Positions 16,872-46,270 of a stretch of DNA of 64,000 nucleotides are shown piece by piece (positions within the stretch are counted from its first letter, which is position 1; each line of letters begins with the position of its first letter). Source of the stretch: Planctomycetota bacterium (lineage in GTDB: Bacteria > Planctomycetota > E44-bin39); the NCBI GenBank assembly GCA_004376375.1, contig SOJX01000016.1, forward strand, positions 19,924-83,923, read 5' to 3'. The notes beneath the pieces were generated by a model. It saw only the letters and a list, made by a program, of their open reading frames with translations, had not been told where the DNA came from and made no database searches. The position numbers and the translations under genes are program-made.

Positions 16872-16943
16872 GGGCTCGTAGCTCAATGGTAGAGCAGGGG
16901 ACTCATAATCCCTGTGTTCCAGGTTCAAGTCCTGGCGGGCCCA
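16872..16943 (+). tRNA. tRNA with CAU anticodon (elongator Met or Ile2)
   Basis: All four stems pair: acceptor GGGCTCG/CGGGCCC with one T-G pair, D arm GCTC/GAGC, anticodon stem GGGGA/TCCCT with loop CTCATAA (anticodon CAT at 16904-16906), T stem CCAGG/CCTGG with loop TTCAAGT. The discriminator is A and no CCA is encoded. The G1-C72 pair and the A-T pair closing the anticodon loop argue against initiator tRNA. Whether it carries methionine, or isoleucine after lysidine modification, cannot be decided from sequence alone. Confidence 0.95.
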
Positions 16944-36384: not shown

Positions 36385-36482
36385 AGTTAGCGGCCGCACT
36401 TGCGCGGCGTATTGTAGGGGCAAGGCATGCGCGTGTTCCTTGCCCCTACAAATTCAACGCGCAGCAAGCTGCGCCGCTAAAT
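36385..36482. repeat. Nested palindromes: TTAGCGGC pair enclosing a GTAGGGG palindrome
   Basis: Outer arms TTAGCGGCCGCACTTGCGCG and its counterpart GCAGCAAGCTGCGCCGCTAA enclose GTAGGGGCAAGG...CCTTGCCCCTAC at 36414-36449. The order suggests one element inserted into another. Confidence 0.8.
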
Positions 36483-37972: not shown

Positions 37973-38000
37973 GTAGGGGCAAGGCATGCCTTGCCCCTAC
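37973..38000. repeat. Perfect 28-bp GTAGGGG palindrome
   Basis: GTAGGGGCAAGGCA followed by its exact reverse complement. Identical to the copy inside the EndoQ gene at 46041-46068. It may also terminate hisS transcription. Confidence 0.9.
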
Positions 38001-41678: not shown

Positions 41679-43256
41679 ATGCCACCGAAAAAAAAGCGCG
41701 AAGTAGAAAAGCGCAACATTCGTGTCCGTAAGACTCCCGCACCGAAGCGGCCCACATTCGACGAGGATATCCTCGAAGATGACATCATCGAAAACGATAT
41801 CGTCGACGACGATTCCCTGGAAAACGACATCATTGAGGACGATATCCTCGATGTTGACATCGTGGAGGAAGAAATAAAGGAGGAAGCTCCCCCTAAAAGG
41901 AGGAAGCTGAAACCGTCAGCCAAGGAGCCGCCTGCCGAGCCGCGTGCCGAGCCGCGTGCCGAGCCGCCCGCCGAGCCGCGTGCCGAAAAGAAGCGCGGGC
42001 CCGACCTTCACATCTCGCAGCTGCAGAGAATGACTATCCAGGAGCTGATCCTGCTCGCGCGGGACGAGGGGGTCGTCGACATCGCCGGCCTCAAGAAGCA
42101 GGACCTGATATTCCGCATCGTCAAGGAGCAGTCGGCCAAGAACGGCGCCATGTTCGGCGAGGGCGTGCTCGAAATACTGCCCGACGGGTTCGGTTTCCTC
42201 AGGAGCCCGCAGTATAATTACCTGCCCTGCCCCGACGACATCTACGTGTCGCCAAGCCAGATCAGGCGCTTCGGCCTGAAGACCGGCGCCACCGTTACCG
42301 GACAGATAAGGCCGCCCAAGGAAGGCGAGCGGTATTTTGCGCTGCTCAGGGTCGAAGCCATAAACCACGAAGACCCGGAAAAGCTGCAGGACAAGGTCGT
42401 ATTCGAAGACCTTACGCCGCTTTATCCCGAGGAGCGCTTCGTAATGGAAACCGACCCGGAAGGCCTTGAAATGCGAATCCTTGACCTTATCTCGCCCATC
42501 GGAAAGGGCCAGCGCGGGCTTATCGTTTCACCGCCGCGCGCCGGGAAAACGGTCATCCTTCAGAAAATCGCAAACTCCATCGTCAGAAACGACCCGGATA
42601 CCTATCTCATCGTCCTCCTCATAGACGAGCGCCCGGAAGAGGTTACCGACTTTCAGCGCGCCGTCAAGGCCGAAGTCGTAAGCTCGACGTTCGACGAGCC
42701 CGCCTCGCGCCACTGCCAGGTTGCGGAGATGGTTATCGAGAAAGCCAAGCGAATGGTCGAATACGGGAGAGACGTCGTCATACTTCTGGACTCGATAACG
42801 CGCCTCGGCCGCGCCTACAATACCGAGCAGCCGCATTCCGGCAAGATACTCACCGGCGGCGTCGACGCGAACGCACTCCAGAAACCGAAGCGCTTCTTCG
42901 GCGCGGCGCGGAATATAGAGGAAGGCGGCTCGCTGACCATCCTCGCCACGGCACTCATCGATACGGGCAGCCGAATGGACGAAGTGATTTTTGAAGAGTT
43001 CAAAGGTACCGGCAACATGGAACTGGACCTCGACCGCCGCCTCGCCGACAGGCACATCTATCCCGCGATCGACATTATCAAAAGTGGCACGCGCAAGGAA
43101 GAGTTGCTGATGCACGAAGACGAATTGAAACGGGTATGGATGATACGCCGCGTGCTGCACGAGATGAATCCGATGGAGGCGATGGAGCTCCTCAAAACCA
43201 AGATGAGAAAGACCAAGACCAACGTGGAATTCCTGATGTCGCTCAGAGACGTCTAA
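41679..43256 (+). CDS. rho: Transcription termination factor Rho with acidic N-terminal extension
   Basis: Hexameric RNA-dependent ATPase that ends transcription. Of 525 residues, about the first 110 are an added region: a basic start, then about 50 residues of Asp/Glu/Ile repeats ([16 protein letters not shown]), then [12 protein letters not shown] repeats. The Rho N-domain follows with the RNA-binding strand GFGFLRSP and [13 protein letters not shown], then the ATPase core with Walker [18 protein letters not shown] and the [11 protein letters not shown]alker B region. GGAGGAGG precedes the ATG. Insertions at this position occur in several phyla and can alter RNA binding or phase behaviour. 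Confidence 0.96.
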
Positions 43257-43301
43257 AACCGCACTTTGCGGCCTTTTTTACACAATTTTTCCAAAAAAAA
43301 T

Positions 43302-43327: not shown

Positions 43328-43618
43328 TGCCCGAAATCAGCTTAAAACAGCCCGAAACAGCCAGGATACGGCTTATGGCCACAGAAGGCATTCTCAAGGC
43401 CGAATTAGAGCACGTTTAGCCGCCGCCACAACATATATAGCTGCAAGATGTTACGCAGAAACTCCGAAATGCGCTTTTCAGCAATAACTCGTATTAACTC
43501 AAATAGCATTTTTATTATACACCTTGATCCAAACGGCGCGCAATTCTCAAAAGGCCGCCAGACGGCTTATAAAGGCCGAATTCGGCAAAAAAAACCCATG
43601 AAAAAAAGATTTTATTTC
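43328..43618. other. Intergenic stretch without recognised gene
   Basis: AT-richer sequence with two weakly similar pieces (CGGCTTATGGCC...GGCCGAATT at about 43370 and CGGCTTATAAAGGCCGAATT at about 43564). Short open frames here have no ribosome site or family resemblance, so I see no gene. Confidence 0.5.
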
Positions 43619-43646
43619 TTGCGCGCGGGGGGCGGTCTGCTATAAT
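43619..43646 (+). promoter_or_regulatory. Promoter of the histone gene
   Basis: TTGCGC, a 16-bp spacer and consensus TATAAT, about 75 bp before the start codon. Confidence 0.65.
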
Positions 43647-43722
43647 GCGGCTGTTTGCTGTCGTTTGACCTGTTTCGGGCATATGGGCCCTTTACCGTTC
43701 AATTTTTTGAAAGGAGTGAGAC

Positions 43723-43908
43723 ATGCCGAAGAAAAGAGACGTATTGGTTGTCAGCTCGAAAGTAAAGAAGTACATCAAGAGCAAAAGGATGAAAAGCTCG
43801 GGCTCCCTCGCCGAAGCTCTTTCGGATGAGCTTTACGGGCTGATCGACAGGGCGATGAAGCGCACAAAGGAGAACAGGCGCGGCACCGTTCAGCCCCGCG
43901 ACCTCTAG
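43723..43908 (+). CDS. Bacterial histone-fold protein (61 residues)
   Basis: A small basic protein whose whole length fits a single histone fold. A first helix covers SSKVKKYIKSK, a long central helix covers SLAEALSDELYGLIDRAMKRTKENRR, and the loop and short last helix read GTVQPRDL. The R-x-T-V-x-x-x-D pattern at the end is the hallmark R-T pair and Asp of archaeal and eukaryotic histones. Size, the N-terminal VLVVSSKVKK and the very short third helix match the bacterial singlet histones described from Bdellovibrio and Leptospira. AAGGAG precedes the start, and the gene has its own promoter and terminator. It probably binds DNA as a dimer; a packaging role is inferred. Confidence 0.8.
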   Translation: MPKKRDVLVVSSKVKKYIKSKRMKSSGSLAEALSDELYGLIDRAMKRTKENRRGTVQPRDL

Positions 43909-43931: not shown

Positions 43932-43962
43932 ACCGGGCGCCGTAAGGCGCCCGGTCGTGTTT
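43932..43962 (+). terminator. Terminator hairpin after the histone gene
   Basis: Perfect 10-bp stem ACCGGGCGCC/GGCGCCCGGT with a GTAA loop; the T run is weak (CGTGTTT). Confidence 0.7.
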
Positions 43963-43994: not shown

Positions 43995-44774
43995 TCAGAA
44001 TCCTCCCCCGATGGCTAAATATCCGTTCGGCTCGGCGCCGACGCTGTATGTCTTGTCAGGGATTAAATCTGAAACATCTATTGGGCCTAACTTAGCCTTA
44101 TATTCAAATTCAAATTTCATCCAGGAATACCCCGCACCGATTTCTACACGAAACCAGTCGAAGGCAAACGTCATCCCAAGGCCCAATCCTACCCCGAATC
44201 CCAAAGCCTCTCCCTTATAGGACAGCGGTCCCAGGATTAATGGATCGACCATCTCCAACCGGGTTAGCTGCACCCTTGCACCGGCACGAGCGAACGGCCA
44301 GAACCAGTCCGTAACGTAAAGCTGGTATCTCACTCCGAACTGCAGTTCCAGCGCGTCCACTTTTTCTTCGCCTGGGTCTACACTGCCGTCAGTCGGGTCG
44401 ACGACCAAACCGTCCCAGTCACTTCTTAATGAAAGCAGCGCCCAGTTGATGCCGATCCCGGAGTCGGATATGATATGTACGCCCATGACTCCAAGTTCGT
44501 CCCACTCATCTTCGTACCAGTCGTCTTTTTCAACTCTCCGTATACCTAAGCCGGCCATCAGCATTGTCTGCTGTGCGACAGCTCCCGCACCGCCGTAGCC
44601 GTCGTCTTCCCCGAAATCGTCATAGCCGTTATAAACAAACGGGCCGGCGGCGGGCAACGGCCCCGGCGATTCCGGCACCAGCAGATCGCCTGCCGGAAAA
44701 CTCTTCGTCCCCGCGCAACCGAGGCAAAAGGACAGCAGCATGAACTGAAAAATAATCAGAGCCCTGACCGACAT
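43995..44774 (-). CDS. Predicted outer-membrane beta-barrel lipoprotein-like protein
   Basis: A 259-residue exported protein. The N terminus is hydrophobic and ends in a lipobox-like LSFCLGC. The mature part has alternating strands with aromatic ends (GVRYQLYVTDWFWPFARAGARV, GFGVGLGLGMTFAFDWFRVEIGAGY) and finishes in Phe, as outer-membrane barrels do. About eight strands can be drawn. No enzyme motif is seen. GGGAGG lies 7 nt before the start. Its role, transport or structural, is unknown; it is convergent with the histone gene. Confidence 0.65.
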   Translation of the reverse strand: MSVRALIIFQFMLLSFCLGCAGTKSFPAGDLLVPESPGPLPAAGPFVYNGYDDFGEDDGYGGAGAVAQQTMLMAGLGIRRVEKDDWYEDEWDELGVMGVHIISDSGIGINWALLSLRSDWDGLVVDPTDGSVDPGEEKVDALELQFGVRYQLYVTDWFWPFARAGARVQLTRLEMVDPLILGPLSYKGEALGFGVGLGLGMTFAFDWFRVEIGAGYSWMKFEFEYKAKLGPIDVSDLIPDKTYSVGAEPNGYLAIGGGF

Positions 44775-44859: not shown

Positions 44860-44942
44860 GTAGGGGTGGGTCTTAGACCCACCCGAATATGGGCGGGTCT
44901 TAGACCCACCCGAATATGGGCGGGTCTGAGACCCGCCCCTAC
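44860..44942. repeat. Three tandem GTAGGGG-family palindromes
   Basis: GTAGGGGTGGGTCT-TAGACCCACCC, then two GGGCGGGTCT-NAGACCC units spaced by GAATAT, closing with CCCCTAC. The last one supplies the stop codon of the EndoQ gene. The chance open frame across it repeats AGLRPTRIW. Confidence 0.85.
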
Positions 44943-46270
44943 AACGCTGCGGTCAAACCGCTGGGGCAGTTGGTGGAAAACCAGTCGCTTGTCCTGCCGA
45001 TAACAAGCTTCCCGTAGGAGCCGTCAAAGCCGAGCGGCTCGAAAGTGAAGTTGCCGCGCTTGACTTCGAGTATATTTTCAAGATGTTCTTCCGGCAGAAC
45101 GTCCGCGAGCGTTTTTTCCACCTCGCCCGCGCTTTGCTCCCAGAATTTAATCTCCGCGCCGAAAGCATCCAGTATCAGTTCGTACTGGGCCATTGCCTTT
45201 TTCGACGCCGGGTTGCTCACCCCCAGGTTGTACGCGCAGATTTCCGAAAGCGGAACCGTATGAATATACCCCTGAGCCGCGCTCAGGGTTTCAAGTTTTC
45301 GGCCGCCGCCCTGGACGCGGGAAAGCTCGAGCGTCCTCTCGAGCACGCCGACCGTCAGCTTTTTGCCGCAGATCGGGCACTTCCGGTCTCCCGGCGTAAA
45401 GTCGGGGGAAAAGCAGCACGCGACCCCGTCGTGCCCTTTTTTATCGCCGCGGTGGCCGGTGAGAAAATACCGCCCTTCCGCGGGGTTGAATTCGGCCGTA
45501 CGCACAACCGCCCGGTTCCTTATCGCGCGGATAATGCCGGCAAAGGATTTCTCCGAAACTTCGAGCGTAGTGAACTCGCGCCCAAGCCTGTGGCTTGCGC
45601 CGGAGTGGCAGTCGGAATTCGAGACAAGTGTGAACCGGTCAAGCTCGGGAATCATCCCGAGCAGTATCGGGTCGGCTGAAAGCCCGGTCTCTACCGCATG
45701 CAGGCGTGCGGTCGCCCTGCCGAAGAACTCTTCCATAGAATCGAGGTGCGGCAGGCAGCCGTAGATTCCCTGCGGCGTCATCACGTGCGCGGGAACCGCT
45801 TCGACGTTTTCATCAATATCGAGAATCGACTCGAGGCGGTCGCCGACTTCGCCCGGGTCTTTGCATTTAAGGAAAGGCCGCCCCAGTCCGAGTTTTACTC
45901 CCCAGGCCTCCAGCTTTTGGAACGCTTCCTCTGCCGAGGCAAATGAGGGAAAAAGAATGACAAGGTGAACGGAGTTTCGCCCCTTGCGGCCCGGCACGGC
46001 TGCGGTAACGATAATCTCAGTCTGGAGCGCAAAGCGCACCGTAGGGGCAAGGCATGCCTTGCCCCTACATATACTCAGGGAAAACAGGCCCGGCTCCTCT
46101 TCGCTCAGGACTTCCCGAAGATGGTTTCGCCACTCCGCATGAAGGCAGTCGCCCGTTCCGAAGACGTCGATGCCTTTCCGCTGCATCGCCTTTGCGATAT
46201 CTTCCAGCCGGATGGCGCCGACGCCGCCGGCGTGCCCGGAATGAGAATGAAGGTCTACGGAAAGGCGCAA
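44939..46270 (-). CDS. Endonuclease Q-like protein (PHP domain)
   Basis: Resembles EndoQ (TIGR00375 group), which nicks DNA 5' of deaminated bases such as uracil and hypoxanthine. The N-terminal PHP domain has DLHSHSG, DVFGTGDCLHAEW, VPAHVMTP and LVSNSDCHS, supplying the metal ligands. A zinc site CPICGKK follows near residue 320, then a helical C-terminal part. Length is 443 residues. Residues near 88-97 (RGKACLAPT) are encoded by a perfect 28-bp palindrome inserted in frame, in a region that varies in the family. The stop codon lies within another palindrome, so the C terminus may be changed. The upstream unknown gene ends two bases before its start. Confidence 0.78.
   Translation of the reverse strand: MRLSVDLHSHSGHAGGVGAIRLEDIAKAMQRKGIDVFGTGDCLHAEWRNHLREVLSEEEPGLFSLSICRGKACLAPTVRFALQTEIIVTAAVPGRKGRNSVHLVILFPSFASAEEAFQKLEAWGVKLGLGRPFLKCKDPGEVGDRLESILDIDENVEAVPAHVMTPQGIYGCLPHLDSMEEFFGRATARLHAVETGLSADPILLGMIPELDRFTLVSNSDCHSGASHRLGREFTTLEVSEKSFAGIIRAIRNRAVVRTAEFNPAEGRYFLTGHRGDKKGHDGVACCFSPDFTPGDRKCPICGKKLTVGVLERTLELSRVQGGGRKLETLSAAQGYIHTVPLSEICAYNLGVSNPASKKAMAQYELILDAFGAEIKFWEQSAGEVEKTLADVLPEEHLENILEVKRGNFTFEPLGFDGSYGKLVIGRTSDWFSTNCPSGLTAAL
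46041..46068. repeat. Perfect 28-bp GTAGGGG palindrome inside the EndoQ gene
   Basis: Identical to 37973-38000. Here it is coding and keeps the reading frame open. Confidence 0.92.

What the first reader, a model, noticed from the sequence alone, without database searches (positions are those of the whole stretch)
43723..43908. Bacterial singlet histone with its own promoter and terminator
The 61-residue protein reads as one histone fold, ending in the R-x-T-V-x-x-x-D pattern typical of histones. Bacterial histones are known from few groups (for example Bdellovibrio and Leptospira). Its separate transcription unit next to rho suggests strong independent expression.
Basis: partly seen in the sequence, partly recalled or inferred. 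Interest (0 to 1): 0.7.

Follow-up and report, generated by a model that had tools for sequence, protein, structure and literature searches.

The report
Planctomycete DNA-wrapping (face-to-face type) histone
This bacterial genome, from the phylum Planctomycetota, carries one gene for a tiny 61-residue histone relative that is 53-54% identical to the Leptospira histone HLp, and it is therefore predicted to form a four-part ring that would wrap DNA; histones of this class were already reported from this phylum, so it is a new member of a known kind.

Summary
The open reading frame is real and lies exactly where reported. It encodes a 61-residue basic protein. Its closest solved relative is HLp of Leptospira perolatii (PDB 9QT0; E 7.8e-15, 53-54% identity), not Bdellovibrio Bd0055/HBb (E 3.3e-4) or archaeal HMfB. 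AlphaFold2 gives a histone-fold monomer (mean pLDDT 90.7) that superposes on HLp at 0.7-0.8 A. The HLp tetramer residues R49, N53 and R55 are all present (R47, N51, R53); HBb lacks the first two. It is best filed as a bacterial face-to-face (FtF) alpha3 histone, predicted to tetramerise and wrap about 60 bp. Against full equivalence, two HLp DNA contacts differ (T56 to G54, R59 to Q57). The genome lies in Planctomycetota, a phylum already named for FtF histones in print; 164 of 392 sampled genomes (this one included) hold a match to the histone profile. A separate transcription unit is plausible: exact -10, weak -35, 10-bp hairpin, terminator-like site after rho. Strong expression is not shown: codon usage is unremarkable and the genome has six HU/IHF-family places. 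Adjacency to rho does not recur in the relatives examined. Well supported, but ordinary.

The parts
41679..43256 (+). rho (transcription termination factor), upstream neighbour, not part of the unit
   Evidence: ORF 525 aa; Rho_RNA_bind E 3.8e-34, Rho_N and ATP-synt_ab over cut-off
43259..43271 (+). terminator-like hairpin (5 pairs) plus T run after rho, probably separating rho from the histone gene
43580..43618 (+). A/T-rich tract (74% A+T, two A runs) just upstream of the -35, possibly an UP-like element
   Evidence: function inferred
43619..43646 (+). promoter-like TTGCGC-16-TATAAT
   Evidence: exact -10, weak -35; does not meet the scan's rule
43712..43716 (+). Shine-Dalgarno AGGAG
43723..43908 (+). 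FtF-type single histone-fold protein, 61 aa; tetramer residues R47, N51, R53; R53-D60 clamp; DNA-facing S12, K13, K15, K19
43932..43955 (+). perfect 10-bp hairpin, likely terminator, possibly shared with the convergent gene on the - strand; weak T tail on this strand
43995..44774 (-). convergent neighbour, 259-aa ORF, weakly outer-membrane beta-barrel-like; not part of the unit
   Evidence: PF13505 25.8 bits, under its cut-off of 28.7

Best explanation
The gene encodes a 61-residue relative of the Leptospira histone HLp that carries HLp's tetramer-forming residues and is predicted to fold as a single histone domain, likely pair into dimers and then face-to-face tetramers, and would wrap roughly 60 bp of DNA around the ring without sequence specificity. 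Shown here: the homology, the residue conservation, one copy found in the genome, and occurrence in many genomes of the phylum. Predicted: the monomer fold. Inferred from HLp: dimer, tetramer, wrapping and a role in compacting the nucleoid. It would act beside HU/IHF-family proteins, which this genome also encodes, rather than instead of them as suggested for Leptospira. The gene likely has its own promoter and terminator.
For: phmmer to PDB: HLp 57.7 bits against HBb 24.6 and HTkC 23.2 bits; 30 of 57 aligned residues identical to HLp. AlphaFold2 monomer, mean pLDDT 90.7, helices 11-20 and 29-50 and a short helix 58-60. Foldseek and VIA-align both rank HLp first (rmsd 0.7-0.8 A over 56-57 residues, 53-54% identity). 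HLp tetramer residues R49/N53/R55 (PMC12701072) correspond to R47/N51/R53. R47 plus N51 are present in 40 of 41 distinct homologous segments, and R53 and D60 in 41 of 41. HBb has S and D at the first two places. A short basic N-terminus (PKKR) fits the report that most bacterial FtF tails are positively charged (PMC11390915); 29 of the 41 segments have a tail of net charge +2 or more. pI 10.4.
Confidence: 0.78

Rival explanations
1. It is a bacterial dimer histone like HBb/Bd0055 that bends or coats DNA as a dimer and does not tetramerise.
Against: Sequence score favours HLp by 33 bits; R47 and N51, which bacterial dimers are reported to lack (PMC11390915), are both present.
Confidence: 0.12
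2. It forms the FtF tetramer but is a minor or specialised DNA-binding protein (local regulation or stress) rather than a general nucleoid packager, with HU/IHF doing the bulk packing. This is compatible with the structural part of the best explanation and differs in role.
For: Six HU/IHF-family places over the Pfam cut-off in the same genome; HU/IHF in 383 of 392 genomes of the phylum; ordinary codon usage; G54 and Q57 replace two HLp DNA contacts. In Thermococcus the FtF histone HTkC is expressed 34 times lower than HTkA (PMC11390915).
Against: A profile match in 164 of 392 genomes of the phylum argues for a durable role; the L. interrogans homologue ranked second of 2,433 quantified proteins (PMC10627809).
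Confidence: 0.35
3. It is a histone-fold protein that no longer binds DNA (DUF1931-like or TAF-like).
For: Changed L2-loop contacts (G54, Q57); histone folds with roles off DNA exist (PMC10627809). The PDB molecule name of HLp itself is 'DUF1931 domain-containing protein', but HLp binds DNA.
Against: No match to DUF1931 (PF09123) in Pfam (one search lists PF00125 only); 17 K/R against 7 D/E, pI 10.4; S12, K13, K15, K19, four of HLp's five main DNA-binding residues, are kept.
Confidence: 0.04

Closest known systems
HLp, FtF histone of Leptospira perolatii (PDB 9QT0/9QT1/9QT2)
   Same: 53-54% identity over 56-57 residues, near-equal length, tetramer residues R49/N53/R55, R-D clamp, alpha1 lysines
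   Different: T56 to G54, R59 to Q57, M26 to K24, S52 to E50, T61 to R59, F63 to L61; host also has HU/IHF, whereas L. interrogans and L. perolatii are reported to lack HU and Dps (PMC12701072); neighbours differ (rho here; smc and map genes in many Leptospira)
FtF-type histones of other genomes of the phylum (e.g. L002/L019, L004/L021, L006/L022)
   Same: 43-57% identity for the eleven aligned in A1, same signature; many with short basic tails
   Different: S, K or Q at the G54 place; no rho beside them in the flanks held
HBb/Bd0055, bacterial dimer histone of Bdellovibrio bacteriovorus (PDB 8CMP, 8FVX)
   Same: singlet histone fold with truncated last helix, R-x-T-V-x-x-x-D
   Different: lacks the R and N of the tetramer interface; 24.6 bits against 57.7 for HLp
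HTkC, archaeal FtF histone of Thermococcus kodakarensis (PDB 9F2C)
   Same: torus tetramer class (PMC11390915), R at position 47
   Different: E at the N51 place; 33-34% identity
HMfA/HMfB, archaeal nucleosomal histones
   Same: histone fold

Membership tests
Bacterial face-to-face (FtF) alpha3 histone | Single histone fold with short alpha2 and truncated alpha3 | tested here: met
   Model helices 11-20, 29-50, short 58-60; best matches HLp, HTkC, HBb
Bacterial face-to-face (FtF) alpha3 histone | Dimer-dimer residues R48 and N52 of the FtF profile (HLp R49, N53, R55) | tested here: met
   R47, N51, R53
Bacterial face-to-face (FtF) alpha3 histone | R-x-T-x-x-x-x-D motif | tested here: met
   R53, T55, D60
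Bacterial face-to-face (FtF) alpha3 histone | Torus-shaped homotetramer (the defining feature in PMC11390915) | not testable with these tools
   Only single chains can be predicted here
Bacterial face-to-face (FtF) alpha3 histone | Wraps about 60 bp of DNA (shown for HLp) | not testable with these tools
   Needs purified protein; S12, K13, K15, K19 kept, T56 and R59 of HLp not kept
Bacterial dimer histone (HBb) | Lacks the FtF residues R48 and N52 | tested here: not met
   Both residues present; much higher sequence score to HLp
Bacterial dimer histone (HBb) | Falls in the HBb sequence cluster (CLANS) | not tested
   No cluster map was made; only pairwise scores to one HBb sequence
DUF1931 pseudodimeric histone | Two histone folds in one chain, PF09123 | tested here: not met
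   61 aa, one fold; Pfam scan with limit E 10 lists only PF00125
Archaeal nucleosomal histone | Full-length alpha3 helix (about 10 residues) | tested here: not met
   Last helix about 3 residues in the model and the chain ends at 61
Pfam PF00125 core histone | Score over the gathering cut-off | tested here: not met
   16.7 bits against 26.4

The most novel reading that the evidence does not exclude
Planctomycetota are a bacterial phylum in which a nucleosome-like, DNA-wrapping FtF histone is an old, long-kept chromatin protein that works side by side with HU/IHF proteins, so that wrapping and bending share one bacterial nucleoid; in the lineage of this window the L1-L2 contact of the dimer has been retuned (K24, G54) to loosen or redirect the wrap.
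Probability: 0.25. Interest if true: 0.55.

Novelty: new member of a known kind. Interest (0 to 1): 0.3.

Why it matters
Few bacterial histones have been characterised structurally; HBb and HLp are the two in the papers I saw. This one adds a clear FtF-type member from a phylum for which my two literature searches listed no characterised histone (the listings were partial, 30 of 108 and 12 of 24 papers). In the sample, 161 of the 164 genomes with a histone match also have an HU/IHF match, which makes the phylum a good setting to ask how the two share a nucleoid. It does not change the known picture by itself.

Tried and rejected
Rejected: Bd0055-like dimer histone as first choice; DUF1931; nucleosomal archaeal histone. 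Looked for conserved synteny with the window's rho, coaE, polA and two downstream ORFs: rho was found only in the window's own locus (flanks about 1.5 kb for L002-L015 and up to 4 kb for L019-L026, shorter where the contig ends; loci L027-L053 were fetched later and not tested). A polA match lies about 2.4 kb from the histone in L019, on the opposite strand; I treat it as probably coincidence. Looked for high expression by codon adaptation against 12 ribosomal ORFs of the same genome: histone 0.719, ribosomal 0.625-0.779 (leave-one-out), 16 of 37 window ORFs lower, and 23% of simulated genes of the same protein score as high; ribosomal genes do not stand out here, so the test says little. It used 37 of the 46 ORFs; 9 were dropped by eye as doubtful. 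No RNA family lies near the gene (one tRNA at 16872-16943 only). NCBIfam has no model for it. The plasmid search with rho found nothing. The antisense ORF has no Pfam match.

The terminator check: a perfect hairpin of 8 or more pairs followed by at least 5 T in 10 bases lies within 100 bases after the histone stop in 4 of 11 relatives (L002-L012) and in the window, against 34 of 4286 windows of 100 bases from the same relatives (overlapping windows, the real terminators not removed). Seven of the 11 have none. Relatives L013-L015 were left out of this check and of alignment A1 because they scored lower. Promoter-like sites upstream of relatives were found in 5 of 11 and had no chance control.

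Full report
What is there. The ORF at 43723-43908 (+) encodes 61 residues, MPKKRDVLVV...RGTVQPRDL, behind a good Shine-Dalgarno. An antisense ORF of 77 aa overlaps it and has no Pfam match. Pfam gives the protein only a sub-threshold PF00125 match (16.7 bits, cut-off 26.4) and NCBIfam nothing, so routine annotation would probably call it hypothetical.

Which class. Schwab et al. (PMC11390915; sections 6 and 7 and passages seen) divide bacterial alpha3 histones into FtF, bacterial dimers and smaller classes, and say that the dimers lack R48 and N52. Hu et al. (PMC12701072; parts 1-3 of 9 and passages seen) show R49, N53 and R55 at the HLp tetramer interface. The corresponding residues here are R47, N51 and R53. 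Of 41 distinct homologous segments from the loci fetched (51 hits before merging identical ones; HU loci left out), 40 have both R47 and N51, and all 41 have R53 and D60; the exception, L013, lacks both. This count is partly circular, since the profile was built from sequences that have these residues. HBb has S and D there; HTkC has R and E.

What differs. Of the five residues that a simulation in PMC12701072 credits with 52% of HLp's DNA-binding energy (R59, K21, K15, S14, K17), four are kept (S12, K13, K15, K19) and R59 is Q57. T56, a contact of HLp loop 2 with DNA, is G54 here; the other 40 segments have S, K or Q, though P0003 and P0004 share the G. M26, which meets T56 across the HLp dimer, is K24, so both ends of that contact have changed. 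K54, another loop-2 contact, is R52. Wrapping is a fair inference; its strength is open.

Where it lives. The genome (G000, 5.68 Mb, 157 contigs, 94% complete) has no close relatives in the set searched: the 39 other genomes share only the phylum. Three of them (G019, G005, G036) hold a contig of the same length and with the same histone as a named Planctomycetota MAG (JAPUJT010000176.1, JASMLP010000123.1, JACQVV010000404.1), so the phylum is Planctomycetota. One histone was found in the genome. With the profile A1, 164 of 392 sampled genomes of the phylum, this one included, have a match at E <= 0.001, and 98 of 217 among the more complete ones; weak matches may include other histone classes. 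HU/IHF (PF00216) is in 383 of 392 of the sample; of the nine without it, three (G178, G289, G331) have a histone match, and all three are under 90% complete. In this genome PF00216 has six places over the cut-off, one of them a short fragment-like match, whereas L. interrogans and L. perolatii are reported to lack HU (PMC12701072).

The transcription unit. rho (by Pfam) ends at 43256 and is followed by a short terminator-like hairpin with a T run. An exact TATAAT at 43641 with a weak TTGCGC 16 bases upstream and an A-rich tract before it would start the message about 70 bases before the ATG. A perfect 10-bp hairpin with a poor T tail follows the stop and faces a convergent gene. TATAAT occurs 35 times in the window on both strands, so one in the 466-base gap is not strong by itself. 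Terminators right after the histone gene recur in 4 of 11 relatives, which supports a stand-alone gene in part of them. Adjacency to rho was not seen elsewhere. Codon adaptation does not single the gene out.

What is known. FtF histones in Planctomycetota are stated in PMC11390915 and PMC12701072, and persistence of histone genes in Planctomycetota in PMC10627809 (passages seen). Two literature searches listed no paper on a characterised planctomycete histone; they cover only the open-licence library and those terms, and the listings were partial. The finding is a real, well-supported new member of a known kind.

Noticed in passing
L026:3995-4360 (MAG labelled archaeon DeMMO3_27, JAGVOD010000097.1): A 121-aa ORF holds two FtF-like histone folds in tandem, both with the R...N.R.T....D signature. 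Pfam gives PF00808 over its cut-off and DUF1931 just under its cut-off (20.9 against 21.8 bits): a tandem histone that may sit between FtF and DUF1931 types.
   Followed up: partly
L023 and L025 (MAGs labelled Candidatus Melainabacteria, nzgw190 and nzgw193): FtF-type histones with the R/N signature (L025:3986-4165, 59 aa) in a group not named for FtF histones in the passages I saw; mislabelled or contaminated bins not excluded.
   Followed up: partly
G000, e.g. G000:C51:80440-80703, G000:C140:49676-49939, G000:C151:8758-9039: Six places over the cut-off for the HU/IHF family in the genome that also has the histone.
   Followed up: no
window 36417-36431, 37976-37997, 46044-46065: Palindromic repeat built on GGGGCAAGGCATGCC between genes; 5 matches with up to 2 mismatches against 0.14 expected.
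   Followed up: partly
window 44861-44945: A few tandem inverted units of the GGGCGGGTCTTAGACCCACCC type in the stretch between 44774 and the next gene, seen by eye.
   Followed up: no
L013 and L015 (both from genome G034): One genome of the phylum holds two different histones, one without the R/N signature and one with it.
   Followed up: no
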